The translations under genes and the position numbers were made by a program. DNA of 64,000 nt from Aureliella helgolandensis. GTDB taxonomy: Bacteria > Planctomycetota > Planctomycetia > Pirellulales > Pirellulaceae. The DNA lies in assembly GCF_007752135.1 (NCBI RefSeq), contig NZ_CP036298.1, forward strand, positions 5,890,859 to 5,954,858, written 5' to 3'. The notes under the pieces are model-generated. The model saw nothing but the letters and a program-made list of their open reading frames with translations, did no database searches and had not been told where the DNA came from. Numbering within the stretch: position 1 is the stretch's first letter; every line of letters starts with the position of its first letter. Of this stretch, positions 171 to 61,605 are shown one piece after another.

Positions 171-281
171 GCGGATTCCAAGCACAAACTGCCGCGTGAG
201 CAAGGAGGAGTGTCTGCTACAGGTTGATTGTGGGTGGCGTCTTCAGGGTGAAACCCAAAAACGCTCTCGAATCAACAAGCC
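171..281 (+). repeat. Dispersed ~110-bp intergenic element, copy R1
   Basis: This spacer holds the core CTGCCGCGTGAGCAAGGA (about 189-206), then CTACAGGTTGATTG, and ends near TCAACAAGCC (272-281). The same order of blocks occurs at 9733-9846, 45982-46090 and 61491-61605. The left terminal repeat is degenerate here. The copy lies downstream of the minus-strand gene that ends at 326. Confidence 0.6.
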
Positions 282-325
282 GTTGCTTGCCCGGCTTTAG
301 TCTTGCGATCTATCCCCGCGGTTCA

Positions 326-1357
326 TTACTGGAATTGGCCGGCGGAGGGCTGCTGTGCCGAACGCTGTGGAGGAGCCTGCCCAGATGCTGGATTCCCAGC
401 TTGCAAATCAGCTTGCGGAGGAATGTAGGGCTCTTCGACCACTTCCCAGTCATTTCCCAGCTTAGTGGGAATGAAGGATTTTCCAAATGCACCGGCAATT
501 GCATCCAGAACTCCATTCGATTTACGATTGGAGAATTGGTACACCTCGCGATGCTCTTGCGAAGGAGACCAGTTGGGTAGGAACACGATTAGAGCCATCG
601 GCAGCGAGTCATTGCGATCCAAGATCACTTGCACTCGCGAGTAGTTCCCGGCATCGTTGGCGCTCTTCGGCCAAACTTCGATCCACAGCTCGTTTTCGGG
701 GCGTCCTGCCGGAAATAGCGGACGAGCCCAGTAGCGTTGTTTGATCTCAGCCGCCTTGACACCAAACAGGAAAGGCAACGGGCTGCGGTAAACTTCCTTG
801 CCGCGACTTTCTGGGGAAAGTTGGATTCGGGTGGCCTTTTTCTCGTTGTGGTCTAGCACGTGAACCCACTCCCCATCGCAAATCCAATGCTCACCGTATG
901 GATGGGTAGGATCAACACGGTATTCATAGGGAGGCGTTTTTTTGGAAACTGTTTCCACTTTGTCCACACGGAATTCACCCTTGCCGGGATCCATAAACTT
1001 AATGAATCCGGTAGCTTGACTCATGTGAGCGTCTGGCAGATTGCCAGGATCAAACTGAAAGCGTTGAAATTCGCACTGATAGCGTTTGATGGCCGCAGTT
1101 CGTTGCTCCCACACCATCAAGACTTGGTCGAGAAACGACTGCTCTTGCTGCGATAGCTCAGGAAAGGGTTGTTGAGCGACTTGCGCAATGCCCGCCTGGA
1201 CCGCTTGCTCGGCGCTCATCAGAGGCACCCGCTGCTGTTGTTCACCTGCCGGTGGGGCAGCGACTTGCGCGATACAACACGCAGGGTTTACGAGAACACT
1301 AGTCGTTACGACGCTAACCCAAACGGTAAAGCGAATGGTATTCCTAATCATCTGCAT
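326..1357 (-). CDS. Secreted planctomycete protein, TIGR03009-like
   Basis: A 343-residue protein with an N-terminal signal segment (about residues 1-30, ending near CCIAQ), a Gln/Pro-rich linker, then a conserved-looking domain that begins around LSQQEQSFLDQVLMVWEQRTAAIKRY and contains ICDGEWVHVLDHNEKKATRIQL. That pattern (coiled start, tracking of outer strands, a lipoprotein-carrier-like beta sheet) matches the planctomycete-only family TIGR03009 as I know it. Its function is unknown. The C-terminus is Pro/Gln-rich. It starts at ATG 1357, with a second in-frame ATG two codons later. It stands alone, transcribed away from the hemolysin III-like gene. Confidence 0.75.
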   Translation of the reverse strand: MQMIRNTIRFTVWVSVVTTSVLVNPACCIAQVAAPPAGEQQQRVPLMSAEQAVQAGIAQVAQQPFPELSQQEQSFLDQVLMVWEQRTAAIKRYQCEFQRFQFDPGNLPDAHMSQATGFIKFMDPGKGEFRVDKVETVSKKTPPYEYRVDPTHPYGEHWICDGEWVHVLDHNEKKATRIQLSPESRGKEVYRSPLPFLFGVKAAEIKQRYWARPLFPAGRPENELWIEVWPKSANDAGNYSRVQVILDRNDSLPMALIVFLPNWSPSQEHREVYQFSNRKSNGVLDAIAGAFGKSFIPTKLGNDWEVVEEPYIPPQADLQAGNPASGQAPPQRSAQQPSAGQFQ

Positions 1358-1553
1358 CTTCCCTGACGCGATTTCACTAGTTGACTATTGCAGCAACTGC
1401 TGCTGGCCGACGGATAGTAGCAGGTGGTGTCGGAAGTCCCTAGATGAATTTCGACAATTCGAGCCATTTCAGCTCGCCGATCGCTACAAACTGCCTATGC
1501 TAGCACTCCAACCGCCTCAGCAAATTATCTAGACCGCCGTGAGAAACAATGCG

Positions 1554-2246
1554 ATGAGTTCAACCGCGGAAACCGGCCCCCCCAAGCAGCCCCAATCGAT
1601 CGACGAAGCAGTCGAAAAAGTCGATTATGTGAGCCTACGCGATGAAACGGCTAATGTCCTGACCCACGGGATCGGAGTTGTTTTAAGCCTAGTGGCCATG
1701 CTCTACTTCTGGAACTTGGCAGCCGACCAGCATCCTGGATTGCGTTGGTCCTGCGTGATCTTCACCATTTCCATGGCGACCGTCTACCTCTTTTCGACGC
1801 TCTCCCACGCCGTGCAGACGCCGCTGTGGCGGAACCGCATGAGAGCTTGGGACCAAGGCACAATCTATCTTCTAATTGTTGGCACCTACACTCCCTTTAT
1901 TTGGCAAGGAAGCCCCACTGGCTACCGCACCCTGCTGCTGGTTCTGGTCTGGACCGCGGGCCTTGCTGGCTTTTATTCCAAGGTATTGGCCAAACATCGC
2001 ATCAACGGCATTTCGACGGTGTCGTACGTCCTATTGGGATGGCTGCCCGCCATTCCCCTCTTTGCCCACACACCCTGGATTTGTTTCGGCTGGATGATAG
2101 GTGGTGGCGTGTGCTACTCGGCTGGCATCTTCTTCCTGATGCGGAGTCACCTCTTCACGTACGCGCATGCCATCTGGCACATCATGGTCATGCTGGGATC
2201 AGCCTGCCATTGCTACGCCATCTACCTATTACTGCAACGTATTTAG
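1554..2246 (+). CDS. Hemolysin III / PAQR-family membrane protein
   Basis: A protein of about 230 residues with seven hydrophobic segments, typical of the HlyIII/YqfA branch of PAQR proteins. The family motif region near the N-terminus reads RDETANVLTHGIG, a segment YLFSTLSHAV contains the conserved Ser and His, and the C-terminal part contains HAIWHIMVMLGSACHCYAI with the metal-binding His residues. PAQR proteins are inner-membrane metal-dependent hydrolase-like proteins; the bacterial role is poorly defined and a haemolytic function should not be assumed. The frame opens at GTG 1539; I prefer ATG 1554 (MSSTAETG), but the choice is uncertain because neither has a clear ribosome binding site. 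Confidence 0.85.
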   Translation: MSSTAETGPPKQPQSIDEAVEKVDYVSLRDETANVLTHGIGVVLSLVAMLYFWNLAADQHPGLRWSCVIFTISMATVYLFSTLSHAVQTPLWRNRMRAWDQGTIYLLIVGTYTPFIWQGSPTGYRTLLLVLVWTAGLAGFYSKVLAKHRINGISTVSYVLLGWLPAIPLFAHTPWICFGWMIGGGVCYSAGIFFLMRSHLFTYAHAIWHIMVMLGSACHCYAIYLLLQRI

Positions 2247-2412
2247 CGTGTCCAAAGGGGCCCAAACCACGCACTCCGTGGTGTCGACGCGAGGCAGCCC
2301 ATAGCGGCAACAGAGTGCTGCGTCCCCGCCAATGTCCATCCCCGCCTAAGTCACCGTGAGTGGTCAATTTTCTGCGGGCGCTGGATGCTACAGGACTTTA
2401 CAAGATTGGCAT

Positions 2413-3222
2413 TCACGGGGTTGGCAACCAGAGCTTGGCTGCTTGTCGAGATTGCCCCAGGATCTGCTCGTATTTGAGATGCTCGACATCCTGACCAACC
2501 ACTTCAATCTCGTAGAAGCCGCGGTAGCCGTTCTTCTGAAACGTCGAGACGATATTGGCTAGTGGAACGCGACCGTGCCCCAACAAACAACGATTTTGCT
2601 CACCGAGTGGCGCGTGCCGAGCATCTCCCAATTGCACGAGTCGCACGTAGGGCACAATTGATTCGAGCCACATCAGTGCCGCAGGATCCTGGGCAACATG
2701 GTAGCAGTCGAAGACAATCCCCAAGTGTGGATTGTCGATGCCTGCGATGATATCGAGACATTCCGGAATGGTATTTAGGAACGACCAATCGTAGGCACAG
2801 CCAACGTGCATGGGTTCCAGGGCCAACTGAACGCCGACCGCCTGAGCGGCTTCCGCCATGTGCCGCAGTGCAGTCCGAAGAATATTGTGTGCATGATTCC
2901 TGGTATGGCCAGCTCGTCCCCCGGTAATGACCGTCACAGTCTCAGCACCGATGTCGGCGGCTAACTGGATCGTATCGAAGGCATCGTGCATGCTCTCGCG
3001 GTAGCTACGCCCGTCGCTCCCAGTGAAGCCCCCCACCCAATGCAACGAGGAAATCCTTAACCCGTGCTCACGCAGCAGTTCGACTCCTTTCTCCTCACCA
3101 TAGTCGGCCAATTTCGGACGCCAAACTCCAATCGCTTCAAAGCCAGCTGCGTGATAGTTCAGCACATCTTCTTCAAAGGTCCACCGAAAAGTGGATAGTT
3201 CGTTGACTGAAAGTCGCAACAT
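2413..3222 (-). CDS. Sugar phosphate isomerase/epimerase (AP endonuclease 2-type TIM barrel)
   Basis: A protein of 269 residues from the preferred start MLRLSVNELSTFRWTFEEDV at 3222; the frame extends 31 codons further upstream, but that extension does not look like family sequence. It has the xylose-isomerase-like TIM-barrel pattern: a first strand and helix with FEAIGVWRPKL, LALEPMH with the metal-ligand Glu, GIVFDCYHVAQDP with Asp and His, LVQLGDARHAPLGEQNRCLLGHGRVPL, and FYEIEVVG near the end. Members isomerise or epimerise sugars or inositols; the substrate cannot be read from the sequence. It is a single gene with no operon partner. Confidence 0.8.
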   Translation of the reverse strand: MLRLSVNELSTFRWTFEEDVLNYHAAGFEAIGVWRPKLADYGEEKGVELLREHGLRISSLHWVGGFTGSDGRSYRESMHDAFDTIQLAADIGAETVTVITGGRAGHTRNHAHNILRTALRHMAEAAQAVGVQLALEPMHVGCAYDWSFLNTIPECLDIIAGIDNPHLGIVFDCYHVAQDPAALMWLESIVPYVRLVQLGDARHAPLGEQNRCLLGHGRVPLANIVSTFQKNGYRGFYEIEVVGQDVEHLKYEQILGQSRQAAKLWLPTP

Positions 3223-3456
3223 CCCTGCTACCGTTCGTCGAGTGTTAGTTGCCGAAAGCAAGCCGAAGAACCAAGACTCATGGTCGCCCCCAACTTGCTC
3301 GTCTACTGCAAACACAACCGCATTCGTGACTGGTTATATTTGCGAGTCGCATTTTGAGGAATCCAGCGCACAAAGTAAAGCGAACTAACCCATTCTATCC
3401 ACAAAAAAGTAACCTCGAAGCCTCTATGCTAGCAATTCCGAACTCCCTACTTCTGG

Positions 3457-3479
3457 AAAAAGGTGGCGGACACCTTCCT
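3457..3479. repeat. Degenerate copy of the 23-bp hairpin repeat
   Basis: Reads AAAAAGGTGGC then G then GACACCTTCCT, which differs at about four positions from the hairpin repeated at 11871-12635. It lies in the spacer between the isomerase and methyltransferase genes. Divergence of both arms suggests an old copy. Confidence 0.5.
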
Positions 3480-3557
3480 GGGCGAATGGGTTATTTACAA
3501 ACCCTCCATTTTAGCGCAAGGGTTACTCGCGAATCTCAGATGCAACACCTTGAATAA

Positions 3558-4439: not shown

Positions 4440-4445
4440 TAGAGT

Positions 4446-5798: not shown

Positions 5799-5869
5799 AA
5801 CAGGTCTCTAGATAGAAAGGAGCCGCGTGAAGTGGCGCAGAGAATTCAATACAGGACTGCCGCTCAGCG

Positions 5870-9373: not shown

Positions 9374-9732
9374 TGTGCAGCGTCCAAACCTTGAAACAGA
9401 AGGTGCGTTGCGCTGGAATCCACGGAAGTTCGATTTTTCAGCGGCGACGGAAGCCGCCCCTTCGCGCCCCACCGCAAAACATCTCGACGAAAAAGCATCT
9501 CGCTGCACGATCGGCTATCGAATTAGCAACTCGCTGCTTGAGCAAGAAAAAGGGGTGCCACTACAAGGCAATCAGGAGCACCACTTGCTCATGAAGACAA
9601 AGCTCGCACTTGAATCCATAGGCCGGTGCGCACGGCACAGACGCTTACCGCACCCACCGGATTGGGAGTGCTAGTATCACGGCAAGCCTCAAACCGGGAT
9701 TTACTCCCCATGCCCCATGCCCCAAGCCCTTC
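9374..9732. other. Spacer between cysH and thiL, no gene seen
   Basis: The gap between the cysH promoter and the ThiL gene is over 500 bp. Short open frames here lack start signals and family resemblance. A small stem AGCCC-TTC-GGGCT sits at about 9726-9738, at the left edge of repeat R2. I see nothing else that can be supported. Confidence 0.4.
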
Positions 9733-9846
9733 GGGCTGTTGAAATAGCAACCCGCCGCGTGAGCAAGGAAAGATAACCTCCGCTGCAAGGTAATTAAGGA
9801 TGCTACCTCCGCATTAAAATTCAAATTGCTATTAAATCAACAGCCC
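9733..9846 (+). repeat. Dispersed intergenic element, copy R2 with perfect terminal inverted repeats
   Basis: A 114-bp element that begins GGGCTGTTGA (9733-9742) and ends TCAACAGCCC (9837-9846), a perfect 10-bp terminal inverted repeat. The interior has the family core CCCGCCGCGTGAGCAAGGA, then CGCTGCAAGGTAATTAAGGA and GCTACCTCCGCA. It has no coding capacity, which fits a MITE or REP-like element. No obvious target-site duplication flanks it. It ends 51 bp after the thiL stop (the gene is read from the right). Confidence 0.75.
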
Positions 9847-9897
9847 GCTTTACGAAGAGTTCCCCAACCAACGCCGAGACACTCAATCGACAAGCCT

Positions 9898-11093: not shown

Positions 11094-11897
11094 ATGCGCG
11101 TTGTGATACTCAAAAATGCTGAGCAGATAAGTTGCCGAGCTGCGGATGTTTTCGGCCAGCTAATCCAGGCCCGTCCAGCCGCGGTGCTCGGCTTGGCCAC
11201 AGGGGGCACCCCCCTAGGAACCTACCGAGAGCTCATTCGAAGATATCGAGCTGGAGAAATCAGCTTCTCCCAAGTCACGACGTTCAATCTGGACGAGTAC
11301 GTTGGCCTCCCACGAGACCATTCGCAGTCGTACCACACGTTTATGCACGAGAACCTATTCAGCCAAGCAGATTTCGATACCGACAACTGCCACCTGCCCG
11401 ATGGAAGTTGCGTCGATCCCGCGCAGGCGGGAGTCGATTACGAACAGAAAATTGCAGCGGCTGGAGGCATCGACCTTCAATTGCTTGGGATCGGGACCGA
11501 CGGTCACATCGCCTTTAACGAACCAGGTTCGTCACTGGCCAGTCGCACACGGCTGAAAGCACTCACCGAGCAGACCCGCAGCGACAACGCTCGTTTTTTT
11601 GAGTCGATCGACGAAGTGCCTCGCCTGGCGATCACGATGGGCATTGGTTCCATTTTGGACACGCAGCGAATTGTGCTCTTAGCCAACGGCGCCGGCAAGG
11701 CCGACGCGGTCCAAGCCTTGGTGGAAGGTCCCGTGACCGCCCAAGTTCCCGCCTCGGCGCTTCAGCTGCACCCCCACGTCACCATCCTGCTCGACGAAGC
11801 GGCTGCGACCAAACTGTCGCGCATCGACTACTACCGCCACGTCGAAACCCTTCAACGCCAGCTAGAAACAAAAAAGGTGTCCGACACCTTTTTGTAA
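11094..11897 (+). CDS. nagB: Glucosamine-6-phosphate deaminase
   Basis: Converts glucosamine 6-phosphate to fructose 6-phosphate and ammonia in amino-sugar catabolism. 267 residues, as in E. coli. Motifs are LGLATGGTPLGTYREL (sugar-phosphate loop), TFNLDEYVGL with the catalytic Asp, LLGIGTDGHIAFNEPGSSL with Asp/His/Glu of the active site, and ITMGIGSILDTQRIVLLANGAGKA. The last eight residues, KKVSDTFL, are encoded by a 23-bp hairpin repeat (11871-11893) and the stop follows directly, so the native C-terminus was replaced or extended by the repeat. Codons from about residue 62 on are duplicated in tandem downstream. Confidence 0.93.
   Translation: MRVVILKNAEQISCRAADVFGQLIQARPAAVLGLATGGTPLGTYRELIRRYRAGEISFSQVTTFNLDEYVGLPRDHSQSYHTFMHENLFSQADFDTDNCHLPDGSCVDPAQAGVDYEQKIAAAGGIDLQLLGIGTDGHIAFNEPGSSLASRTRLKALTEQTRSDNARFFESIDEVPRLAITMGIGSILDTQRIVLLANGAGKADAVQALVEGPVTAQVPASALQLHPHVTILLDEAAATKLSRIDYYRHVETLQRQLETKKVSDTFL
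11871..11893. repeat. 23-bp hairpin repeat, copy A (end of nagB)
   Basis: Arms AAAAAGGTGTC and GACACCTTTTT pair perfectly around a single C. On either strand it gives a GC stem followed by T residues, so it could act as a bidirectional terminator. It encodes the KKVSDTF tail of NagB. Confidence 0.85.
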
Positions 11898-11930
11898 AAC
11901 GGGGCAACCTACCAAACCTCCTATTCCACC

Positions 11931-11953
11931 AAAAAGGTGTCCGACACCTTTTT
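11931..11953. repeat. 23-bp hairpin repeat, copy B
   Basis: Same 11-1-11 hairpin as copy A, 37 bp after it. It marks the right end of the first duplication unit. Confidence 0.85.
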
Positions 11954-11959
11954 GATTTC

Positions 11960-12579
11960 CGACGTTCAATCTGGACGAGTACGTTGGCCTCCCACGAGAC
12001 CATTCGCAGTCGTACCACACGTTTATGCACGAGAACCTATTCAGCCAAGCAGATTTCGATACCGACAACTGCCACCTGCCCGATGGAAGTTGCGTCGATC
12101 CCGCGCAGGCGGGAGTCGATTACGAACAGAAAATTGCAGCGGCTGGAGGCATCGACCTTCAATTGCTTGGGATCGGGACCGACGGTCACATCGCCTTTAA
12201 CGAACCAGGTTCGTCACTGGCCAGTCGCACACGGCTGAAAGCACTCACCGAGCAGACCCGCAGCGACAACGCTCGTTTTTTTGAGTCGATCGACGAAGTG
12301 CCTCGCCTGGCGATCACGATGGGCATTGGTTCCATTTTGGACACGCAGCGAATTGTGCTCTTAGCCAACGGCGCCGGCAAGGCCGACGCGGTCCAAGCCT
12401 TGGTGGAAGGTCCCGTGACCGCCCAAGTTCCCGCCTCGGCGCTTCAGCTGCACCCCCACGTCACCATCCTGCTCGACGAAGCGGCTGCGACCAAACTGTC
12501 GCGCATCGACTACTACCGCCACGTCGAAACCCTTCAACGCCAGCTAGAAACAAAAAAGGTGTCCGACACCTTTTTGTAA
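11960..12579 (+). pseudogene. nagB: Truncated second copy of nagB
   Basis: Second duplication unit. It repeats nagB from about codon 62 to its stop, with identical sequence. An in-frame TGA (11953-11955) lies just upstream and the first ATG is internal (12025, MHENLF), so the N-terminal third, including the sugar-phosphate loop, is missing. There is no obvious promoter. It is almost certainly non-functional, although it could supply sequence for recombination with the intact gene. Confidence 0.88.
12553..12575. repeat. 23-bp hairpin repeat, copy C
   Basis: Duplicated version of copy A, at the end of the truncated nagB copy. Confidence 0.85.
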
Positions 12580-12602
12580 AACGGGGCAACCTACCAAACC
12601 TC

Positions 12603-13736
12603 CTATTCCACCAAAAAGGTGTCCGACACCTTTTTGATTTCGAGTAGGTTGGCGGGTGTGATTCCATCGAGTATTCGGAGTTCCTTCAATTCCGCAAGCA
12701 CTTTGACACCTTGTTCACTCAGGTCGCTGCTGTCCATTGCCAAGCAACACAAATGCTCGAGATGCGATAGTTCGCGGGCTAGGGAATCGTTGACGACTCC
12801 TCGAATTAGGACCACCTGCAGGGTTGGATTGTTCGCAATCAACTCTACTAACTTCGATTGCTCTCCTTGGCTGTGCACCCTCGCTTCCAGCGTATGAGGC
12901 TCGCCATGCTCGTAGTATATTTCGGCGGACCACACGGGACCTTTTTGATGCTTTCTGGCGTATGGTTCAAGCTCTCCGAAATTATAGCGATCGACACTCC
13001 TGGCAACATCTCGGTATTCGAACGACTGATAGGGAACCACAGTCGCCTTCATGTCAGCGATCGGCGGCACGGTCGACAACTTATGGAGCACAATCGAGTC
13101 CGCATCAGAAGACAATGCTCTAATCGATCCATCCCCATTGCAGACTTGAAACTCGCCTCCCCAAAGAATTTGATCGCTGCGGTGGTCAGACGCGATTTCG
13201 TTCAATGGACGCCAGTTATAGGGGTAAGCCCAAGGCTGAAATCGTTGACTAATCTCACCAACTAGCCATGTGTGCTTGGAACCGTCTACGAGCTGTTCTA
13301 GGCGGACCGAACTTTTAGAGTGCATGATGTTGGGATTCGCCAAGTAATGGATGAGTGCAAAATCGTCTGTTGTTGAAAGCGAGTCTATCTGTGGGTTGAT
13401 GGTCGTCGCATAGACGTCTCCAAACAGATACTTATTGAACGGGTGCTTCCAACCGTATCGCATATCAATTCGGCTGTAGAGCGAACTGGCTTCAATATAG
13501 GGCGTTGTGCGCGTGAACCAACCATGCTTCGGTCCTGTAGGATCGTAGTCCGCTCCCATTGGGAATTGCTTGTGGGCGTCCAGGTAGTTGTGGCAAGCCA
13601 AACCGATCTGCTTCAAATTGTTGGAAGACTGCATGCGGCGTGCTCCGGTGCGTGCCATTTCAATTGGTGGGAGAAATAGTAAAACCAATACTAGTAAACA
13701 GACCATCGTCACTACAGTATTTCGCTTCTTCCTCAT
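12603..13736 (-). CDS. DUF1559-type membrane protein fused to a leucine-rich-repeat-like tail
   Basis: About 377 residues from ATG 13736 ([13 protein letters not shown]). A single hydrophobic N-terminal segment ([17 protein letters not shown]) is followed by [35 protein letters not shown], the classic DUF1559 start of planctomycetes, and by WLVGEISQ and [11 protein letters not shown] near the domain end. The last 90 residues are unusual: [41 protein letters not shown] and [14 protein letters not shown] look like leucine-rich repeats. The final residues [10 protein letters not shown] come from hairpin copy D, so this gene and nagB both carry repeat-derived tails. Function unknown; probably anchored in the membrane and exposed outside the cytoplasm. 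Confidence 0.75.
12613..12635. repeat. 23-bp hairpin repeat, copy D (end of the DUF1559 gene)
   Basis: Duplicated version of copy B. It encodes the last residues of the minus-strand DUF1559-LRR protein, which stops at 12603. Confidence 0.85.
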
Positions 13737-15422: not shown

Positions 15423-15519
15423 TCGAATCGTATTGCGCACTTCATCTGCTTGCCGCCCAAATTGCAGAAGCCCCGTTTGCAGAAGTGGTGCTAGCTCGCA
15501 GGCTGCCCCCATAACCGCG

Positions 15520-15573
15520 CTGTAGCAGCGTCGATCTAGCCTTGCTCACGCGGCGGGTTACGATTGTGGCGAG
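15520..15573 (-). repeat. 54-bp direct repeat, copy 1 (remnant of the dispersed element)
   Basis: This block recurs at 15659-15712 with two differences (T/C). In reverse orientation it contains CCCGCCGCGTGAGCAAGG, the core of the ~110-bp dispersed element, preceded by ATCGTAA where R2 has ATAGCAA. Confidence 0.75.
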
Positions 15574-15658
15574 ACTGCGGCGGTCGCTGCGTCTTGCCAA
15601 GCACTGCCCTGATCAAACAAGCTATAAATCCAACTCGCCCCTAGCCCCCGTATCCGCA

Positions 15659-15712
15659 CTGCAGCAGCGTCGATCTAGCCTTGCTCACGCGGCGGGCTAC
15701 GATTGTGGCGAG
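15659..15712 (-). repeat. 54-bp direct repeat, copy 2 (remnant of the dispersed element)
   Basis: Second copy, 139 bp after the first in the same orientation. It ends 60 bp before the stop of korB, which is transcribed towards it. Confidence 0.75.
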
Positions 15713-26885: not shown

Positions 26886-27220
26886 AAGCCGAAGGATCGG
26901 GCGGTTGGACCTTGCAGCCAGCCGAAGAGCTCCCGGGTTCGCATCCGTCCGCGTTCGCAACCGCCATTCGCCAGCTGGAAACAAATCGCTTGAGGCTCGC
27001 CGCTTAAACCGCGTTTGCCAGTTCAAGGTCCCCGGAATCGCATTACAGAAGAAACCACACCTGCCTCGCTTACCGACAAGTGGTTTAAGAGCGTTTTCAG
27101 TCTTAACGCGGAAGTAGCACCGAAAGTCCCTTGGACTGGCAACTACCTATCCTTGCTCACGCAGCGACTTGCTTTTCCCTAAGTCGTCACGCGGTGGGGT
27201 GCAATTCTTGGTTGAGCAAG
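26886..27220. other. Spacer with a reversed remnant of the dispersed element (R7)
   Basis: No gene is supported here. At about 27138-27180, on the minus strand, CGCTGCGTGAGCAAGGATAGGTAG matches the core of the dispersed intergenic element, and AAAAGCAAGT precedes it. Nothing else stands out. Confidence 0.5.
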
Positions 27221-35794: not shown

Positions 35795-36198
35795 TTGGCT
35801 ACGGTTGGGCAGCCGTTTTCAATCGCTAGCTGCCCCAAATCCCGATAGATTTCGCGGCTCTCTACAGGTTTCACAACGTGGGCCGTGAGATGCGATAGAA
35901 TGTAGCCGGTTGGTTAAGAACCGCCGGTCGAGCGTCACTGGCCATGCATCGAGCAGCAGGGCCCGCTGATTGGATTGCCTGTTTAGTTTCAGTGCCAACA
36001 TCGCACTTGGAATTGCGTCGTAGCAGCAACGACTTCGGCCTAGGCTGCGCGGCGGTTTGCACGGTCAACAAGTTGCGCAGCTACGACTGGCTCGCATCCC
36101 TGGGATCCCACCGAACTCCAGGATCGACTTCGAGAAGCTCCCTCCCGCCTCGGCGCCCCCACCCTTTCGCCACCGAACACTTTCTAGGACATCGAAGA
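35795..36198. other. Spacer before the sialidase gene
   Basis: No gene is supported here. A weak, reversed resemblance to the dispersed element core occurs at about 36017-36065 (GTAGCAGC, GCGCGGCGG). Open frames here are not protein-like. Confidence 0.35.
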
Positions 36199-37467
36199 AT
36201 GAACGCGGAAAATACGCGAAACGGCCACCGCAACCATTGCGCGAGGCTCGCTCTATTTTGTCTCTCAATGCTGATCGGTCTACCGAGTTCGGCCAGCTGG
36301 GGTGCAGACCCCTTAATTGCCTCTATCTCCAAGGAAACACTGTGGAAAAACCGAGATGGAAAATCACAAACGTGGTTTCATCCTCGGGTCTGCATGATGC
36401 CCGGCGATCAGGGACAACCCGTTGCCTTGATGACACTCCAGGCCATTGGAGGCTCAGACTACTTTGGGCAGGTGCATTGGTCGCTGTCGTCCGACCTAGG
36501 CAAAACCTGGAGCGAACCGGAACCGATCGCTGCCCTGGGACGAGATCCCATTCCTGGCCGCGCCGATGACCTGAGAGCTGCCGTGTGCGATGTCACCCCT
36601 CAATACCATCCACAATCCGATTCGGTACTAGCGCTGGGCCACGTCGTGTTTTACAAAGGTGAATACTTTGCCCGCAAAGAACAACTCGCACGGTACCCCG
36701 TCTACGTGACGCGGTCTAAGGATGGTACATGGTCCCATCGCAAAATCTTGGAATGGGATGACCCACGAGGTAGCCACATCTATTCAAACAACTGCGGACA
36801 ACGGGTCGTCCTCCCGAGTGGGGATGTGCAGATGTCATTCACCTTTGGCCCCCACGAAGAGAACCGGATGGTAGCGGGTGTCCTTACCAGCTTTGATGGA
36901 GACCTGCTGAAAATTAAGGAGGTAGGACCTCCGTTGCATAATCCGATAGGACGAGGGTTGCTGGAACCGAGCGTTACAGAGTTTGATGGACAGTTCTGGA
37001 TGACAATTCGGGCCGAGGACAATTACGGCTACGTCAGTGTTAGCGACGATGGCCTCAACTGGGCAGAAAAAACGGCTTGGGCCTGGGATGATGGGGAGCC
37101 TCTCGGCATGTCCACCACTCAGCAGCATTGGCTCAATCACAGCGACGGCCTATTCCTGGTCTACACGCGACAGGATGCGTCCAACGAGAACGTGCTCCGC
37201 TGGCGTTCGCCGCTCTGGATCGCCCAAGTCGACGTTGAGCGTCGCTGCTTGATCCGCTCAAGCGAGCAAGTGGTACTTCCTTTAGTTGGAGACGGCGTGG
37301 ATGCACCCGATCAAGTCGCGTTGATGGGGAATTTCAACGTCACGCATGCCAGCCCCAATGAGTCTTGGGTCACTGTCGGTGAGTGGCTACCACGCGATGG
37401 TTATCGAGGCGATGTATTGCTCGCTAGAATCCGCTGGAGCAAACCCAATCAGCTGCCGTTGTGGTAA
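36199..37467 (+). CDS. Sialidase-like (BNR/Asp-box) secreted protein
   Basis: About 422 residues from ATG 36199 (MNAENTRNGHRNHC) with a signal peptide (LALFCLSMLIGLPSSASWGAD). Asp-box-like segments include SSDLGKTWSEPEP (a good SxDxGxTW match) and VSDDGLNWAEKT (a degenerate one), and the fold is a predicted beta-propeller. The segment SQTWFHPRVCMMPGDQG near the N-terminus and RAEDNYGYVSVSDDG near the C-terminus fit planctomycete exo-alpha-sialidase-family proteins. The enzyme class is inferred; several such proteins are not true sialidases. It heads a cluster with a ceramidase-like and a sulfatase gene. Confidence 0.78.
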   Translation: MNAENTRNGHRNHCARLALFCLSMLIGLPSSASWGADPLIASISKETLWKNRDGKSQTWFHPRVCMMPGDQGQPVALMTLQAIGGSDYFGQVHWSLSSDLGKTWSEPEPIAALGRDPIPGRADDLRAAVCDVTPQYHPQSDSVLALGHVVFYKGEYFARKEQLARYPVYVTRSKDGTWSHRKILEWDDPRGSHIYSNNCGQRVVLPSGDVQMSFTFGPHEENRMVAGVLTSFDGDLLKIKEVGPPLHNPIGRGLLEPSVTEFDGQFWMTIRAEDNYGYVSVSDDGLNWAEKTAWAWDDGEPLGMSTTQQHWLNHSDGLFLVYTRQDASNENVLRWRSPLWIAQVDVERRCLIRSSEQVVLPLVGDGVDAPDQVALMGNFNVTHASPNESWVTVGEWLPRDGYRGDVLLARIRWSKPNQLPLW

Positions 37468-45786: not shown

Positions 45787-46465
45787 TCTCTCCTGATTAA
45801 CTGAGTCCTGGTGGCATGGCTAAAAAGCATTCCGCCACGTGAAAGCTTATCGATCCCGCAATGCGCCACACCATCGCTCGTTGGTACGGTCAGCTGTGGC
45901 GTAGCGGCTGGTCGACATTGTAACTCGCCATATAACGACGGTTTGAAAACGGTTGGTTGAAATAGTCCCCCGCCGCCTGACGGGCTGTTAAAATCCTACC
46001 CCGCTGCGTGAGCAAGGACAGGTGGTTCCCCCTACAGGGCAATTACGGACGCTACCGTCGCAGTAAACTTGCTAGCGCTCTCAACGCGGCAGCCGCGTGA
46101 GGATCCGGATAGTGCCTGCAGCAACACGCTTTTGGGGAGCACTTCCCTCCGGATAAAACTGGAAACGCGCTGACACCCACCAGTCGGCAGCTAAGACAGC
46201 TCGGTTGCTGCGGCATTGCGATTCGCAAATGTGATTTGGAAGATGATGCTAGCGTGGCAATGGAATAGGGAATCGAGGTTACCCCGCCATCATGATTCCG
46301 CGTAGTCGCTGCCCACTCCGTCGGAATGCAACTGGAACGAGCGGCTCCAGGAGACCATCAGTGGCGCGTGGCAAGCCCAATTCGACTCGTCCTAACACCG
46401 GCGGTGTATTGAACTCACTGTCCGATCCGGGGCGACGCGTAAATAAAATCTTAAACGCACATGGC
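45787..46465. other. Long spacer with dispersed element R3, no gene seen
   Basis: About 680 bp between the oxidoreductase and RNase D genes. It holds copy R3 of the dispersed element (45982-46090). Open frames within it show no family likeness and are not supported by start signals. Confidence 0.45.
45982..46090 (+). repeat. Dispersed intergenic element, copy R3
   Basis: Starts GGGCTGTTAA (45982-45991), contains CCGCTGCGTGAGCAAGGACAG, CTACAGGGCAATTACGGA and GCTACCGTCGCAGTAAA, and ends TCAACGCGGC (46081-46090). The right terminal repeat is degenerate compared with R2. Same length class. Confidence 0.7.
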
Positions 46466-49132: not shown

Positions 49133-49265
49133 CGCTGATTGAAATAGCAAACTGCTGCGTCAGAGATTATTAATCGAGTTGCAGTCTCAATTCCAATGCG
49201 AAACTCGCATCCCAAGTCGAAACGCAGCAGTGTCCAATCCAGCCTTGCCCGCCGGCGGCAAACAC
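49133..49265. repeat. Degenerate copies of the dispersed element (R5, both orientations)
   Basis: At 49136-49160 the plus strand reads CTGATTGAAATAGCAAACTGCTGCGT, the left end and core of the element. At 49224-49260 the minus strand resembles the 15520 remnant (GCAGCAG, CCAGCCTTGC, CGGCGG). These are partial, decayed copies. Confidence 0.4.
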
Positions 49266-49378
49266 TATCAGCCAGCCGGTGCCTAAGAACAGGTGGCTGC
49301 CGCTCAACGCAAGTTCGGGGCACTGCCACCTGGCTGAAATTCAAACTGCCCTTCAGTCCACAAGCCGCTCGACGCGGA

Positions 49379-53999: not shown

Positions 54000-54598
54000 C
54001 GCTACCTCCAGCTTCCCCCCGTAGCATGTGTCACACACCCGTAGCATGGCCCCCCCGGGCCGTGCCCCCTGTCACTCCTAATTCCCCCCTCAACACTCCA
54101 CCCTACAGCTCCCGCTGCAACGCAGCAAAAGTCCCCTTTAAACGAACATGATTCTAAAGCAAAACTGCTATTTATCGTGCGTCCCAGTCCGGGGCTTGAC
54201 TTGAAGAAGCCGTCGTGGTCCCCCAAATCGAAACAGCCCCCCTCGCCCCGCCTCGGTACTCCGGAGAGATGGGGACGGAGGGTCAGAGGCTTGCCAGGCA
54301 ATTAGACGCAATATCCTCAATCACGGCCCGGGGCCATGCTACCTCCGTGCACGAAACAGCCTCCACCTGCTCCGGGGAGATGGGGGAAGGGGGGAAGAGA
54401 GCTTGCCAGGTAACTAGACGCAATATCCTCAATCACGGCCCGGGGGGCCATGCTACCTCCATGCCCGAAACAGGCTTCCCTCGCCCCGGTACTCCGGGGA
54501 GAAGGGGAGGGGGGGTGAGGGGCTTGCCAGGCAATTCGTCGCAACACCCCACCCCATATTGCCATCACCCCAGAGCAGCACTTGCTGGGATTCAAATC
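54000..54598. other. 600-bp GC-rich repeat spacer
   Basis: No gene is supported. The left part holds a GTAGCATG-type hairpin (54041-54065). The right part is a three-copy tandem repeat, listed separately. The frame that runs through it into the glycosyltransferase gene is not a real N-terminus. Confidence 0.6.
54231..54547. repeat. Three imperfect tandem copies of a ~115-bp GC-rich unit
   Basis: Copies begin at AAACAG at 54231, 54353 and 54468. Each has CTCCGGRGAGA and a G-rich run, then CTTGCCAGG; the first two end with ATCCTCAATCACGGCC and a GGCCATGCTACCTCC tail, the reverse of the GTAGCATG hairpin. The third copy stops at about 54547. Confidence 0.75.
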
Positions 54599-56332
54599 AT
54601 GCCGGCTAAATATCTCGGTTGCCTAGTCGTGATACTCTTCGGACAAGGGGCATTCTTGTGGTGCGCGACCACGCGTCTCAGTCCGACCGTTGACGAATAC
54701 CCGCATCTAGCGGCAGGGGTCGAATATTGGAATACCGGTACCACCGATTTGTATCGGGTCAATCCTCCACTAACGCGACTCTGGGCGACTTGGCCAGTGG
54801 CTCTCGGTGGATATCGCGTGCCGCAAACGGATTTCTTCGTTGCTAGCGGGAAGACGGCGCGCCACGAGTTCAGGCGCGGCCCCATGTTTGCCGAGGCCTA
54901 CGGTGAGCGTGCTTTCCAAGCGTTGGTGCTAGCCCGCCGCATGTGCATCCCGCTGGTGTTACTCGGAACGTTAGGGGTGTTTGCTCTCGCCGTGACGGCT
55001 ACCGGAAATCCGCAAGCCGCCTGCTTGGCCAGTGTCCTGTGGGGCTTCAACCCCATTGTGTTGGGCTACGGTCCGCTGCTTGGAACCGATATCCCTGCCG
55101 CGTGCGTGGGCGTGTGGGCCGTGTTTGCCGTCACGCACGCCTACCAATCCTCAAGACTCAGGGATGTTGTCTTGGCGGCAATTTGGGTAGGACTAGCCAT
55201 CGCCACCAAATTCACTTGGCTAATTCTATTTCCAGTAGCTGTCGTCGCCATCGGCATGGGCGTTCGCCGCAGCGCTCTCTCAGAGAAACTTTCCACACGG
55301 AGATGGCTTCGACCGCTGGGGGCAACTTGCATGTTCGCTTTCCTGGTGTGGGCCGTGGTGGCAACGGCGTACCGCTGGCAGAACTTGTTCATCCCTTTGC
55401 AGGACTTTGAATTCACCTCCCAGATGCTGGCCGGCCCGATCGAAGGCATGTCAGGAAACCGTTGGACAGGCACCCTCCTCGGAGCACTGCCCATTCCAAT
55501 CCCGGGCACCATGCTCGAGGGATTGGATTTGCAATGGCAAGATTTCGACACACCTCGCCCAGCCTTCCTGTGTGGGCAATGGCAGAGGGGAGGTTGGTAT
55601 TCCTACTATGCATTCGTGCTTTTGATGAAGATGCCGATCGGTTGGCTGCTGCTGCTGGCTGTAGCTGCCAAGTGGAGTTTTCGTTGGAACAGCCTGGCAC
55701 TCGCTTGCTGGGGAGTCATTGGCATTTGCTTTGTATTCGTCAGCTTGAAAACGAACATGAATCAGCATGGCCGCTATATCTGGCTCGTGCTCCCCGAGTT
55801 GGCTGTGGTCGCCGTCGCAGGATTCAATCAGTGGAATCGCATTTTGCGTAGCCTGGCCTGGATCGCAGCCGGGGAGGTCGTACTGACAAGCTGCCTTGTT
55901 TTCCCATTTGGTTTGTCGTTTACCAATCAACTATGGGGTGGTCCGCAAGCTGCATCGTCCCTCTTGGCAGACAGCAATGTCGACTGGGGACAGGGCTGGG
56001 TGGAAGTAGCCCGTTGGTCAAAACTCCCGAATGAAACGCACCTTCCCGTAGCCATTGTTCGTCCACATTGGGTGAATTTCGCCGCGCTAGGAATCGACAC
56101 GATTGAGCATTCGGACTTGTCGGACAAACAGCTGTCTGAGCTAGCCACCAACTCCACCGTCCTGGTGTTGGTCTCCATCGATTCACGCCAAATGCTCCAG
56201 AGCAATCGGACCATTCCTTGGATGGATGTCAATCCGCAGGTGCGAATTGGCTGCTGCGTGGAAGGCTATGAAATTTCACTCTCAAGCCTACAGACACTCG
56301 ACATTTTTTGGCTGCGCAAACCACCCCTTTGA
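54599..56332 (+). CDS. GT39-type membrane glycosyltransferase
   Basis: About 577 residues from ATG 54599 (MPAKYLGCLVVILFGQGAF). It has 9-11 hydrophobic segments and the first-loop acidic motif TVDEYPHLAAGVEYW, where GT-C enzymes carry the catalytic Asp/Glu. Other family-like parts are NPPLTRLWATWP, GERAFQALVLARRMCIPLVL and WGFNPIVLGYGPLLGTDIPAACVGVW. The C-terminal domain includes LLADSNVDWGQGWVEVARW. It would transfer a sugar from a lipid-linked donor to an extracytoplasmic acceptor (protein or lipid A-like). No partner genes are nearby. Confidence 0.82.
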   Translation: MPAKYLGCLVVILFGQGAFLWCATTRLSPTVDEYPHLAAGVEYWNTGTTDLYRVNPPLTRLWATWPVALGGYRVPQTDFFVASGKTARHEFRRGPMFAEAYGERAFQALVLARRMCIPLVLLGTLGVFALAVTATGNPQAACLASVLWGFNPIVLGYGPLLGTDIPAACVGVWAVFAVTHAYQSSRLRDVVLAAIWVGLAIATKFTWLILFPVAVVAIGMGVRRSALSEKLSTRRWLRPLGATCMFAFLVWAVVATAYRWQNLFIPLQDFEFTSQMLAGPIEGMSGNRWTGTLLGALPIPIPGTMLEGLDLQWQDFDTPRPAFLCGQWQRGGWYSYYAFVLLMKMPIGWLLLLAVAAKWSFRWNSLALACWGVIGICFVFVSLKTNMNQHGRYIWLVLPELAVVAVAGFNQWNRILRSLAWIAAGEVVLTSCLVFPFGLSFTNQLWGGPQAASSLLADSNVDWGQGWVEVARWSKLPNETHLPVAIVRPHWVNFAALGIDTIEHSDLSDKQLSELATNSTVLVLVSIDSRQMLQSNRTIPWMDVNPQVRIGCCVEGYEISLSSLQTLDIFWLRKPPL

Positions 56333-56455
56333 ACACCAGCCAACCACCCGACGACGCTGCCGGATCGATCGCCTTTTCTAAAAAGCAGGGAAAACCCTTG
56401 CCCCCCCCCCATTCCAACCTGATAACATCAACCACACAGGGGTCATGCCGGCAGG

Positions 56456-57577: not shown

Positions 57578-57600
57578 TGAAGTCCCAACCGAAAGTAACA

Positions 57601-58005: not shown

Positions 58006-58065
58006 AAACTGCTGTACTACTAAGCATTTGTCCTACATGTCTCCGCTGCGTTTAAAGGAAACACA

Positions 58066-59178: not shown

Positions 59179-59266
59179 GCAGAGCATGAGCATTCGCTCG
59201 ACAGCCAGTTGCCAGCGCGGACCACGCCAGCACAAGAGCTTTACCCTTCTTCGAAAGTTGACAGCC

Positions 59267-60190
59267 ATGCACATGCCAGCCAAGCGCACGGGGTTTACGA
59301 TCGTTGAACTGTTGACGGTCATCGGCATTATCTCCATCTTGATAGGCTTGCTGTTGCCTGCGATCCAATCCGCTCGTGAATCAGCTCGGAAGATGGATTG
59401 CATGAACCGCTTACGACAGATTGGCGTGGCAACTCACCATTTTGAATCTGCCTACCGAGCCTTTCCGGGGAATGGCTGGGGGTATCGCTGGCGGGCAGAT
59501 CCCAACCGGGGGATTGGCCCCCAACAGCCTGGTGGCTGGATCTTTCAAATCGCTGGCTTCTGTGAAATGCCCCTTCCAGCGTCGACTGCCATAGATCCCA
59601 TCGCCAGCTTGCACACCAGGACGGAACTGACTCGCTTGCCCTTCCCGCTCATGCGTTGCCCCAGCCGTCCCGGCAGTGAGCTGAGTTTGGCTAGTGTGGC
59701 GTCGACTCCTTACAATGCAACCTTTGTCGCATTGGTCGCCAAAACGGATTACGCAGCCAACGAAGGAAGCTACATCACCGACACCGACGGTGGTCCCAGA
59801 TCCTTGGCAGAGGGAGATCGACGGAGCTACCACTGGACCAACACCGATGCAGCCAATGGGGTTATTTATTTGAGAAGTCGCGTTCGAACCGCTTCCATCA
59901 CCGGCGGACTGTCCCAAACCTATTTGGCGGGAGAAAAACATGTTTCTTCGGCCAACTATTTTGATTCCCAAGATCCCGGTCACGATCAAAGCCTATTCTC
60001 CGGCGTGGATCTCGATTTAAACCGCTGGACATCCGAACCACCTCAACGCGATTCGCGGGATCAGCACACCCGCGCATTCGGATCGGCCCATCCATCCGGC
60101 TGCAACATGCTGCTCTGCGACGGAGCAGTCGCCACCGTCGACTATTCAATCGCCCCGGCGGTCCATCGCGAGCAGGGGACTCGGCAATAA
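59267..60190 (+). CDS. DUF1559 protein with pilin-like N-terminus
   Basis: About 307 residues from ATG 59267 (MHMPAKRTGFTIVELLTVIGIISILIGLLLPAIQSARESARKMDCMN in pieces). The GFTIVELL type-IV prepilin-like cleavage site is followed by RLRQIGVATHHFESAYRAFPGNG, the DUF1559 hallmark. The end has HPSGCNMLLCDGAVATVDYSI, the H-x-G-GCN...DG motif. Such proteins are exported and very numerous in planctomycetes; role unknown. Confidence 0.87.
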   Translation: MHMPAKRTGFTIVELLTVIGIISILIGLLLPAIQSARESARKMDCMNRLRQIGVATHHFESAYRAFPGNGWGYRWRADPNRGIGPQQPGGWIFQIAGFCEMPLPASTAIDPIASLHTRTELTRLPFPLMRCPSRPGSELSLASVASTPYNATFVALVAKTDYAANEGSYITDTDGGPRSLAEGDRRSYHWTNTDAANGVIYLRSRVRTASITGGLSQTYLAGEKHVSSANYFDSQDPGHDQSLFSGVDLDLNRWTSEPPQRDSRDQHTRAFGSAHPSGCNMLLCDGAVATVDYSIAPAVHREQGTRQ

Positions 60191-60304
60191 CGGGACAGAG
60201 AGAAGCGTGCTTGAGACGCGGCAGAAGGGGAGCACAACACCCTAACTAGCGTAGAGGCCTCCTTAGAATGAGAGACTCCCTCAACCCACAGGAGTCGCAG
60301 GTGC

Positions 60305-60338
60305 ACAAAAAAAGCCGTAGGAAGGTTCCTAACGGCTT
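60305..60338 (-). terminator. Rho-independent terminator of the lysine-rich protein gene
   Basis: On the minus strand AAGCCGTTAGGAA pairs with TTCCTACGGCTT (one bulged T) around CC, followed by a run of seven T. It begins about 54 bp after the stop of the gene at 60392. Confidence 0.85.
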
Positions 60339-60391
60339 GATGCAGTGTCGGCGATTCGAGAATCAAGGGTTACCAAGATCCTCACGGTGAG

Positions 60392-60706
60392 TTAGGTCAC
60401 CGCGACAGTGGCTTTGATTTTTTGAATGATATGCTCTTCTCCAGAGGCACTCATTAGCTTAGCAGCTCTCTTCTCCGCTTCAGCCTTCTTATCAAATTCA
60501 AACATCGCCACTCGCTTGAGGTCTTGGTTGAAGACGGCCCAATAGAGGCGAGTTCGACTCTCCACTTTGACTCGTCGCCGTGGTTTCGGCGCTTCGCCAT
60601 CAAGGGGCGCTTTCTTCACCGCTTTTACACGGGATGAGGCCTTGGCTCCGGAACGAGTTTTGGGCGGCACTTTGGATTTTACAGCAGTAGCAGCGCGACC
60701 GGCCAT
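60392..60706 (-). CDS. Small lysine/arginine-rich protein with a C-terminal alpha/beta part
   Basis: 104 residues from ATG 60706 (MAGRAATAVKSKVPPKT), with AGGAG at 60715-60719 giving a well-spaced ribosome binding site; the longer frame to 60766 is less likely. The N-terminal half is basic and disordered (KSKVPPKTRSGAKASSRVKAVKKAP, RRRVKVESR), histone-tail-like; the C-terminal half RLYWAVFNQDLKRVAMFEFDKKAEAEKRAAKLM looks folded. It may bind nucleic acid. A terminator follows. Confidence 0.7.
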   Translation of the reverse strand: MAGRAATAVKSKVPPKTRSGAKASSRVKAVKKAPLDGEAPKPRRRVKVESRTRLYWAVFNQDLKRVAMFEFDKKAEAEKRAAKLMSASGEEHIIQKIKATVAVT

Positions 60707-60766
60707 GCATGAAGCTCCTAAGAAGATATGGGAAAGAAAGATGAGATGCTGAAACACAAGGATCAA

Positions 60767-61490
60767 GCGGAATCCCTCCCGCAGAGCCGCTGTTACAACG
60801 GCCCTAGCGACTCATCTCGTCACCTACTCAACCTTCGTTGAATACGCAACTGAATAACTGTACAGGTAGTTGTCCACGGGGCACGTTCGACTGACCGAAA
60901 CCTCAGTCAACCTCTTCCATGTCCAGCCAAGTTGCGGATACCACATTCACAGGTGGGGCGCGGAAGTCAGCAAGCAATCATCGCTGCTGACCCAACGGCG
61001 AACTGAATGTTGATTTCTTACGAGTCCAAGCAGACTCACAATCCGTCACAGGTAGGTACTTCGTTAGCTTGACTGCGTTCTATTGTAATGCATCTCACAG
61101 AGATTTGACAGTACCAAGTGTCGAATTGAAAAATAGTTGCACTTTCCACGCCAATTAACGCTTGACAAATCCTTCCTCATAACCTCTCTAGGGCCCCCAC
61201 AACATGCAGCCATCTTGCACAGATACCTGCATCTGCACGCACGTCGTGACGACGCAATGCGATTGCTTCAAGGCCCGCTGATAGACACCGCAAAGTGCTA
61301 GCAGCTGTACCGCGCCATTCACGTTGGTACTCCCCCCTAGACTGAACCTGGGGAGCACACAAGTGTGTGCGCACGAAGTCTGCCAGCGGGGCCAGGCTTA
61401 AGAAGCGATCCACCCTGCTTTGACCGGTTGGTGGATTGGAGCGCACTGCCAGTTGCACTGTCGCGCGTTAAGCACTTTCCCTTGCTCACC
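60767..61490. other. Long spacer, no supported gene
   Basis: Over 700 bp with AT-rich stretches around 61060-61170 and no gene that I can support. An open frame at 61177-61458 on the minus strand shows no family likeness and has unusual composition. Confidence 0.4.
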
Positions 61491-61605
61491 GGGCTATTGA
61501 AATAGCAATCCGCTGCCTGAGCAAGGAAAGGTGATTGCCGCTACAGGCCAATTGGGGAAATCACCCATTTAGTAATAGCTAAACTTGCCATTGAATCAAC
61601 GAGCC
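61491..61605 (+). repeat. Dispersed intergenic element, copy R4
   Basis: Starts GGGCTATTGA (61491-61500), has AATAGCAATCCGCTGCCTGA then GCAAGGAAAGG, CGCTACAGGCCAATTGGGGA and AGTAATAGCTAAACTTGCCA, and ends TCAACGAGCC (61596-61605). Order and length match R2. Confidence 0.72.

What the first reader, a model, noticed from the sequence alone, without database searches (positions are those of the whole stretch)
171..61605. A dispersed ~110-bp intergenic element with terminal inverted repeats
Copies R1 (171-281), R2 (9733-9846), R3 (45982-46090) and R4 (61491-61605) share block order: GGGCTGTTGA-like left end, a GCCGCGTGAGCAAGGA core, a CTACAGG-AATTA block and a TCAACAGCCC-like right end. R2 keeps a perfect 10-bp terminal inverted repeat. 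Decayed or partial copies occur at 15520-15573, 15659-15712, 27138-27180 and 49133-49265, in both orientations. All lie between genes. This looks like a MITE or REP-type family, non-coding and moved in trans.
Basis: seen in the sequence. Interest (0 to 1): 0.75.

Follow-up and report, generated by a model that had tools for sequence, protein, structure and literature searches.

The report
Self-nesting MITE with IS1182-type ends
The window contains copies of a 116-base parasitic DNA element that codes for nothing, most likely moves with a borrowed IS1182-type transposase, and often lands at one fixed spot inside other copies of itself, so that copies pile up inside one another.

Summary
R1-R4 belong to a genome-wide non-coding family: 268 core sites (<=1 mismatch; reversed-pattern control 0) in 8.44 Mb. 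The intact element is 116 bp (C-GGGCTGTTGA...TCAACAGCCC-G), with 11-bp TIRs and a 4-bp target duplication (exact in 40 of 70): a MITE, not a bare REP. Of 29 copies chosen only by similarity to R2, 21 carry the family core at a junction (13 on both sides concordantly): insertion at nt 28-31 (GC^GTGA^GC) of another copy. No transposase with these ends was found in this genome. An IS1182-family IS in a genome of the same family (three identical 1795-bp copies) has the same 15-bp end CGGGCTGTTGATTTA and 4-bp duplications, at palindrome centres. Relatives carry mostly 117-118-bp MITEs with these ends around about four dissimilar hairpins. A second IS1182-family IS (17 copies here, 3-bp duplication) sits two bases away in the same core (15 of 17). 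IS1182-type MITEs and hairpin targeting are in print; the self-carried landing site, differing hairpin cargo at near-constant length and a second IS on the same site were not seen in the papers searched.

The parts
9732..9847 (+). R2: intact 116-bp element, perfect 11-bp TIRs CGGGCTGTTGA/TCAACAGCCCG; flanks CCTT / CTTT (CTT shared; no family core at either side)
9759..9762 (+). GTGA inside R2 (element nt 28-31), the place at which other copies are inserted in family members elsewhere in the genome
   Evidence: direct reading
171..281 (+). R1: diverged copy, left TIR decayed, right end TCAACAAGCC
   Evidence: E=3e-13
9513..9622 (+).
   Evidence: E=3.9e-16
15492..15566 (-). Partial diverged copy; repeated with its surroundings at 15642-15705
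   Evidence: E=3.9e-13
15642..15705 (-). Partial diverged copy, second of the pair
   Evidence: E=7.5e-10
27081..27177 (-).
   Evidence: E=9.2e-20
35965..36070 (-). Weak diverged copy overlapping the listed start of a long ORF (35944-37467)
   Evidence: E=2.8e-7
45952..45980 (+). Left fragment (nt about 3-31) of another copy, ending at the landing site where R3 begins
   Evidence: searches (E=3.9; 45956-45980, E=0.056): weak by score, supported by abutting R3
45981..46090 (+). R3: copy apparently nested in that fragment; right TIR decayed
   Evidence: E=1.8e-22
49139..49163 (+). Left fragment of an outer copy (nest at 49139-49364)
   Evidence: (E=0.17): weak by score, supported by position
49167..49266 (-). 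Inner copy in inverted orientation within the outer copy
   Evidence: E=5.9e-5
49285..49364 (+). Right part of the outer copy
   Evidence: E=4.9e-9
61491..61605 (+). R4: diverged copy; its left flank CCCTTGCTCAC is the inverted core of another copy (61443-61505, weak), so it looks nested in inverted orientation
   Evidence: E=8.1e-22; outer fragment E=0.0034

Best explanation
The repeats are a MITE family: non-autonomous 116-bp elements with 11-bp TIRs, moved in trans by an IS1182-family (DDE) transposase that makes 4-bp target duplications. The element carries a favoured target in its own REP-like core (nt 28-31, GTGA, within GC-NNNN-GC), so each insertion brings a new landing site and most copies of the youngest set lie inside other copies, in either orientation, as nested clusters. 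Shown: family, TIRs, duplication, repeated use of that site, and an IS with matching ends in a relative. Inferred: that an IS1182-family enzyme moved these copies; that its source was lost from this genome, was transient, or is IS-A acting across families; and that the target is chosen as the centre of a palindrome (clear for some autonomous ISs, weak for the MITEs).
For: Duplication: exact 4 bp in 40 of 70 and >=3/4 in 56 of 70 own elements; other lengths 0-3 of 70. Nesting: of copies L001-L030, 21 of 29 have the family core at a junction, 13 of them on both sides in one orientation, 8 on one side or discordant (rows; L022 dropped because one TIR is incomplete); over 70 elements 50 on any side and 34 on both. 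Profile hits 1-31, 1-116, 28-116 abut in series, so nt 28-31 are duplicated. Uninterrupted cores serve as empty sites. Partner: IS in G162, three identical 1795-bp copies, 18-bp TIR CGGGCTGTTGATTTATTC, duplications GTAA, TTAC, TGAC, NCBIfam IS1182 312.5 bits, cut-off 270; own MITE right end matches it at 17 of 18 bases, left end at 14 of 18. Neorhodopirellula pilleata (G157) has an IS1182-family IS with TIR CGGGCTGTCGGTTTAG and CTAG duplication in a genome with 301 CGGGCTGTTGAWWW ends. Eight ISs with 4-bp duplication pair 7.1 of 12 flanking positions against 4.45 at random sites, z 4.4.
Against: No IS with these ends was found in this genome: TIR scans for exact 11-bp ends, DUF772 (17 hits, all at IS-A copies), N. 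pilleata transposase (0 at E<=1e-60, only 3 of 47 candidates scored). Only three transposase domains (PF01609, PF05598, PF01797) were searched here. G162, which has the matching IS, shows no 116-118-bp MITE in 400 kb sampled. The palindrome signal of the eight ISs comes from four sites in G162 and G163 (9-10 pairs); the other four score 4-7, the N. pilleata IS 4. MITE sites: own non-nested 5.4 of 12 against 4.5 (z 2.2, N=16); relatives 4.9 (z 1.3, N=35), and there a register slid by one base scores higher (4.5 against 4.1 of 10). Shuffling right flanks gave no excess. 14 of 70 own elements have fewer than 3 of 4 duplicated bases. The left TIR departs from the IS after base 11.
Confidence: 0.8

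Rival explanations
1. The elements are REP/REPIN sequences spread by a RAYT (Y1, HUH) transposase.
For: They carry the arm TAACCCGNNGCGTGAGCRAGGRA, which in relatives is part of a REP-like hairpin; the genome has seven Y1_Tnp matches, six above the cut-off.
Against: A 4-bp target duplication and 11-bp TIRs are not expected of Y1 transposition (established knowledge, recalled). Of the seven Y1 loci (about 1.5 kb flank each) only L206 has a family hit, about 1.2 kb from the gene.
Confidence: 0.06
2. IS-A, the IS1182-family IS of this genome, itself moves the MITE across families.
For: Resident in 17 copies, the seven proteins listed identical to the query at 100% after rounding; IS1182 family like the G162 IS; TIR partly similar (TAGGCTGTGAA against CGGGCTGTTGA); same target core (15 of 17). 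Three MITE copies match my typed consensus at 99-100%, so a source existed recently.
Against: IS-A duplicates 3 bp (exact in 15 of 17), not 4, at nt 23-25 rather than 28-31; only part of the TIR is shared. N. pilleata and G159 have many ends but no IS-A-like match at E<=1e-30 in the listing.
Confidence: 0.15
3. Copies spread mainly by recombination or gene conversion among intergenic repeats, not by transposition.
For: Tandem arrays with 119-, 121- and 241-bp periods; 14 of 70 elements have unequal flanks; one-sided nests suggest later exchange.
Against: Exact 4-bp duplications with precise ends at sites without the family core (L006, L011, L014, L017, L018, L030).
Confidence: 0.05
4. A structured RNA or regulatory motif conserved in place.
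For: The typed consensus folds better than shuffles (z -4.15 and -3.59 for the two strands), mainly through the TIRs; nearly all copies are outside long ORFs.
Against: No Rfam match in the window; six interiors without TIRs have z of only -0.5 to -1.9; no match at E<=1e-5 in 14 genomes of the same genus, several of them incomplete.
Confidence: 0.02

Closest known systems
IS1182-derived MITEs of Methanosarcina acetivorans (partner ISMac2; PMC3852290, one table passage seen)
   Same: Short non-coding elements assigned to an IS1182-family partner; one listed with values I read as 26-bp IR and 4-bp direct repeat
   Different: 160 and 169 bp; the passage seen says nothing of hairpin cargo, nesting or a self-carried target
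IS1272/TnSha1, IS1182 family, hairpin targeting (PMC4923244, passages seen)
   Same: IS1182-family element inserting in palindromes with little primary sequence specificity
   Different: There insertion deletes part of the stem-loop and makes no duplication; here 4 bp (3 bp for IS-A) are duplicated
ISs inserted in REPs: IS1397 and others (PMC1525189, start of abstract and two passages seen); ISPpu9 (PMC8450116, start of abstract in listing)
   Same: Mobile elements that use abundant extragenic palindromes as landing sites
   Different: The words IS1182 and MITE do not occur in PMC1525189; no element carrying its own target in what I saw
GTAG REPs, REPtrons and TIRtrons (PMC3733652, passages seen)
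   Same: Palindromic intergenic repeats, also in Planctomycetes; TIR-flanked relatives
   Different: Associated with Y1 tyrosine transposases
ISPse1, IS1182 family (PMC3281130, passages seen)
   Same: Table row I read as 16/16-bp IRs and 4-bp duplication
   Different: An autonomous IS of Paracoccus

Membership tests
MITE | Short, non-coding, terminal inverted repeats | tested here: met
   Of 85 TIR pairs 60-160 bp apart (TIRs selected with <=1 mismatch) 70 span 112-120 bp and 57 are exactly 116 bp
MITE | Target-site duplication of fixed length | tested here: met
   4 bp exact in 40 of 70; other lengths 0-3 of 70
MITE | Autonomous IS with matching ends | tested here: met
   In G162; not found in the own genome
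MITE of the IS1182 family | Partner transposase above the IS1182 cut-off | tested here: met
   312.5 bits against 270
MITE of the IS1182 family | Movement by that transposase | not testable with these tools
   Needs a transposition assay
IS1182-type hairpin targeting | Insertion at the centre of a palindrome | tested here: inconclusive
   Clear for 4 of 8 autonomous ISs; weak for own non-nested MITE sites (z 2.2) and not significant for relatives' MITE sites (z 1.3)
REP/REPIN | Complete short hairpin with GTAG-type tag | tested here: not met
   Own elements keep one arm and read GTAA; several relatives' loci have the full hairpin
REP/REPIN | Associated RAYT flanked by the repeat | tested here: not met
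   One of seven Y1 loci has a copy, about 1.2 kb away on one side
Known Rfam RNA | Match above gathering score | tested here: not met
   0 matches in the window

The most novel reading that the evidence does not exclude
A system of MITEs in several Pirellulaceae genera in which one pair of ends and a near-fixed length (116-118 bp, about 11 DNA turns) is kept while the interior is swapped among dissimilar genomic hairpins. The cargo is of the palindromic kind that IS1182 transposases use as landing sites, so each MITE is a mobile landing pad for itself and for other ISs.
Probability: 0.4. Interest if true: 0.75.

Novelty: new variant of a known kind. Interest (0 to 1): 0.55.

Why it matters
It gives a natural case of a transposon family that carries a favoured target of its own, which steers new insertions into other copies and away from genes. 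It makes two questions testable: how IS1182-type transposases recognise their targets (sequence or palindrome; 3-bp or 4-bp duplication), and why minimal elements keep one length while their interior differs.

Tried and rejected
RAYT origin: rejected for the target duplications. Partner among other ISs of this genome: IS-A (TIR TAGGCTGTGAA, 3-bp duplication), the 470-aa family (ends read in L087 only), the 445-aa family (TIR TTCGACTTTCGCAC) and a 1.8-kb IS (TIR TAGTGTCTGTCC) do not have the MITE ends; for the single 461-aa transposase L098 and the fragment L100 no ends were determined. Transposase families other than PF01609, PF05598 and PF01797 were not searched in this genome. Long TIR pairs in relatives: G159 C159 and C199, G157 401631-404318, and of the 14 loci listed the nine that I read (L417; L403, L355, L361, L393, L406, L405, L366, L388): only L355 held a transposase, the rest are ordinary genes between MITEs, MITE halves or chance ends. 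The five others (L340, L348, L363, L378, L395) were not read for ORFs, but tblastn of the L355 transposase over all 459 loci found no other close relative. Plasmid records: no match. Target pairing tested by shuffling right flanks gave no signal; the random-site control is weak for MITEs and clear only for part of the autonomous ISs. Literature: no description of this family in what I saw of searches (two listed no paper); I opened passages of five papers and saw the rest as listings; the library holds open-access PMC papers only.

Biases: own elements come from several pulls. L001-L030 were chosen by similarity to R2 only; one search selected in part for nested left ends, so 50 of 70 is inflated and 21 of 29 is the fairer figure. 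Loci were fetched with a pattern containing CTAG, so CTAG among their duplications is inflated; in L301-L320, fetched by place at TIR positions, 4 of 7 exact duplications are CTAG (rows). Eight own-genome rows were mislabelled as relatives and dropped (65 to 57 rows). For IS-A-like targets 15 of the 22 relatives' rows were used and 2 of these dropped for unequal triplets.
Full report
WHAT IS THERE. The window lies at 5,890,859-5,954,858 of an 8.44-Mb single-contig genome. R1-R4 and the partial copies are present as described. A family profile finds 11 segments in the window at E<1e-3 and none at E<=1 in the reversed window. The core GCCGCGTGAGCAAGGA occurs 142+126 times with at most one mismatch (control 0+0); the TIR-plus-core pattern 78+71 times with at most two (control 0+0). 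In 904 kb of contiguous sequence 59 profile hits were found, 30 on the + strand, 2 with midpoint in an ORF of >=200 aa (ORF cover about 75%). Simple extrapolation gives about 550 copies and fragments in the genome (inference; nested pieces count apart).

ANATOMY. Aligned copies have sharp ends, C-GGGCTGTTGA ... TCAACAGCCC-G, 116 bp. Of 85 own TIR pairs 60-160 bp apart (<=1 mismatch per TIR), 70 span 112-120 bp and 57 are exactly 116; most of the rest are 146-151 bp, many of them an outer end paired with an inner one. The 4 bp outside are duplicated: exact in 40 of 70, at least 3 of 4 in 56 of 70; lengths 2, 3 and 5-8 give 0-3 of 70. Examples without the family core at the junction are CAAA, TATA, TTGA, TATC and TTAA. 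Own interiors form two 8-mer clusters (68 and 2 of 70); examples of the two subfamilies are clearly related (z 17.8).

SELF-TARGETING. Many insertions lie in another copy at one position. In the 29 copies chosen by similarity to R2 alone, 21 have the family core at a junction: 13 on both sides in one orientation, 8 on one side or discordantly (rows). Over all 70, 50 have it on at least one side and 34 on both, in both orientations (this set is enriched for nested ends). Profile hits 1-31, 1-116 and 28-116 abut repeatedly, so nt 28-31 (GTGA or variant) is the duplicated target. In the window R3, R4 and the inner copy at 49167-49266 appear nested, though the outer fragments of R3 and R4 score weakly; R2 is not nested. 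Which copy is older was not measured.

PARTNER. The whole genome was scanned for the exact 11-bp end not followed by MITE sequence. The hits that I read are MITE variants, MITEs broken by IS-A, nested ends, and a few without such structure; for the reversed-pattern control gave 1+10 hits against 14+12. DUF772 gave 17 hits, all at the IS-A copies. A search of 396 genomes of the order with the N. pilleata transposase found matches at E<=1e-60 in 8. In one, G162, three identical 1795-bp copies have 18-bp ends CGGGCTGTTGATTTATTC and duplications GTAA, TTAC and TGAC; the protein is IS1182 family (312.5 bits, cut-off 270). Two of the three sites read as 8-bp perfect stems with the duplicated 4 bp as loop, the third as a stem with one G-T pair. 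The right end of the own MITE agrees with this IS at 17 of 18 bases, the left at 14 of 18. N. pilleata Pla100 (Pirellulaceae; taken to be G157 because two contig lengths agree) has one IS1182-family IS among the loci seen, with CGGGCTGTCGGTTTAG ends and CTAG duplication.

RELATIVES. The full element at E<=1e-5 was seen only in the own genome of 241 in the family (3 candidates scored per genome); four others match 30-42 bases of the left part. TIR-plus-core occurs in 9 of 240, the own one included. In a number of the 22 loci read there the core is one arm of a complete hairpin; others are truncated or composite. Many ends CGGGCTGTTGAWWW occur in G157 (301) and G159 (65). In relatives' loci 57 elements of 112-121 bp were collected; 55 are 117 or 118 bp and 35 have an exact 4-bp duplication. 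Their interiors form nine 8-mer clusters, which local alignment of one example each merges to about four groups: the GCGTGAGCRAGGGA hairpin (related to ours), GTTTAACGGCAAGCCG, a GAGCCG/TTAGCCG group, and GTACGACGGACTTCC. Between groups most scores are at the level of shuffles, but a few reach z 2-3.5, so dissimilar is safer than unrelated. Six relatives' interiors fold as strong hairpins (z -4.7 to -11.7); six own interiors do not (z -0.5 to -1.9). So ends and length are kept while the hairpin differs. Why the length is kept is not shown; end-to-end phasing in a small transpososome is my guess.

A SECOND USER OF THE SAME SITE. IS-A (about 1.5 kb, IS1182 family, 333 bits) is inserted as AACCCGCY|IS|GCYGCG, duplicating nt 23-25; 15 of 17 copies lie in the repeat core, L108 and L110 do not; 15 of 17 triplets are exact. 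Pairing round the IS-A sites is 5.65 of 12 (z 2.8). Relatives of IS-A in other genomes (12 of 239 have matches, own included) often sit in local repeats or palindromes; 13 of 15 examined have an exact triplet and pair 7.2 of 12 flanking positions against 4.4 at random sites (z 5.7), but six of these are copies of one IS in G170, so they are not independent.

MECHANISM AND STATUS. Shown: a TIR element with 4-bp duplication, landing often at one site in its own kind; an IS1182-family IS with the same end elsewhere; some IS1182-type elements at centres of palindromes. Inferred: that such a transposase moved these copies. Not shown: any movement, and where the source is now. For MITE sites the palindrome signal is weak (own non-nested z 2.2, N=16; own nested z 4.8, N=24, all one kind of site; relatives z 1.3, N=35, with a one-base slide scoring higher), and four of the eight autonomous ISs show little pairing, so sequence (GC-NNNN-GC, CTAG) may matter as much as structure. 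Recent movement is likely, since three copies match the typed consensus at 99-100%.

WHAT IS KNOWN. IS1182-family MITEs (ISMac2, PMC3852290, a table passage), a 4-bp duplication for an IS1182 element (ISPse1, PMC3281130, passages), hairpin targeting by IS1272 (PMC4923244, passages), ISs in REPs (PMC1525189, abstract start and passages) and REPs in Planctomycetes (PMC3733652, passages) are in print. I saw no description of this family, of a MITE nesting in its own core, or of differing hairpin cargo in searches. Verdict: a real MITE family, a new variant of a known kind.

Noticed in passing
window 11278-12641: A 682-bp segment is repeated exactly in tandem (11278-11959 and 11960-12641), with two AAAAAGGTGTCCGACACCTTTTTG-like palindromes in each copy.
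   Followed up: no
L087-L097 (own genome): A 470-aa DDE_Tnp_1 IS (482 aa in two) in 11 copies; in L087, the one whose ends were read, it is bordered by GGTGTCGGACACC-like palindromes resembling the window repeat above, so another IS may be tied to another palindrome family.
   Followed up: partly
L123 and L124 (2.33 and 2.365 Mb of own genome): Tandem arrays of diverged family members with 121- and 119-bp periods; one unit of the second array is split by another element at the landing site.
   Followed up: partly
L069 345-1526: A tandem array of about 241-bp units between two TIR ends, with ORFs of 110-146 aa running through the repeats.
   Followed up: no
L358, L378, L424, L446, L448, L450, L459: Pairs of MITE ends joined by a single CTAG in relatives (7 of 7 junctions with 0-12 bp between; loci were fetched with a CTAG pattern); this makes a near-perfect palindrome and could be a fresh target or a dimer. 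The own-genome sample had four junctions, with 2 or 8 bp between.
   Followed up: no
L417 2068-3706: Two MITE-like elements on either side of a gene in Rhodopirellula maiorica, with CTAG outside both; the gene looks like a desaturase (recalled, not searched).
   Followed up: no
own genome 5957567-5957905: A Y1_Tnp (RAYT-like) gene about 2.7 kb beyond the right end of the window, without a family copy in the 3.3-kb locus.
   Followed up: partly
window 54246-54549: Three imperfect 71-nt repeats 112 and 121 bp apart inside a long ORF (54215-56332).
   Followed up: no
L342: The 19-base end CTAGCGGGCTGTTGATTTA also occurs once in a record titled Candidatus Kuenenia stuttgartiensis (a metagenome-assembled genome), possibly outside the Pirellulaceae or a binning error.
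   Followed up: no
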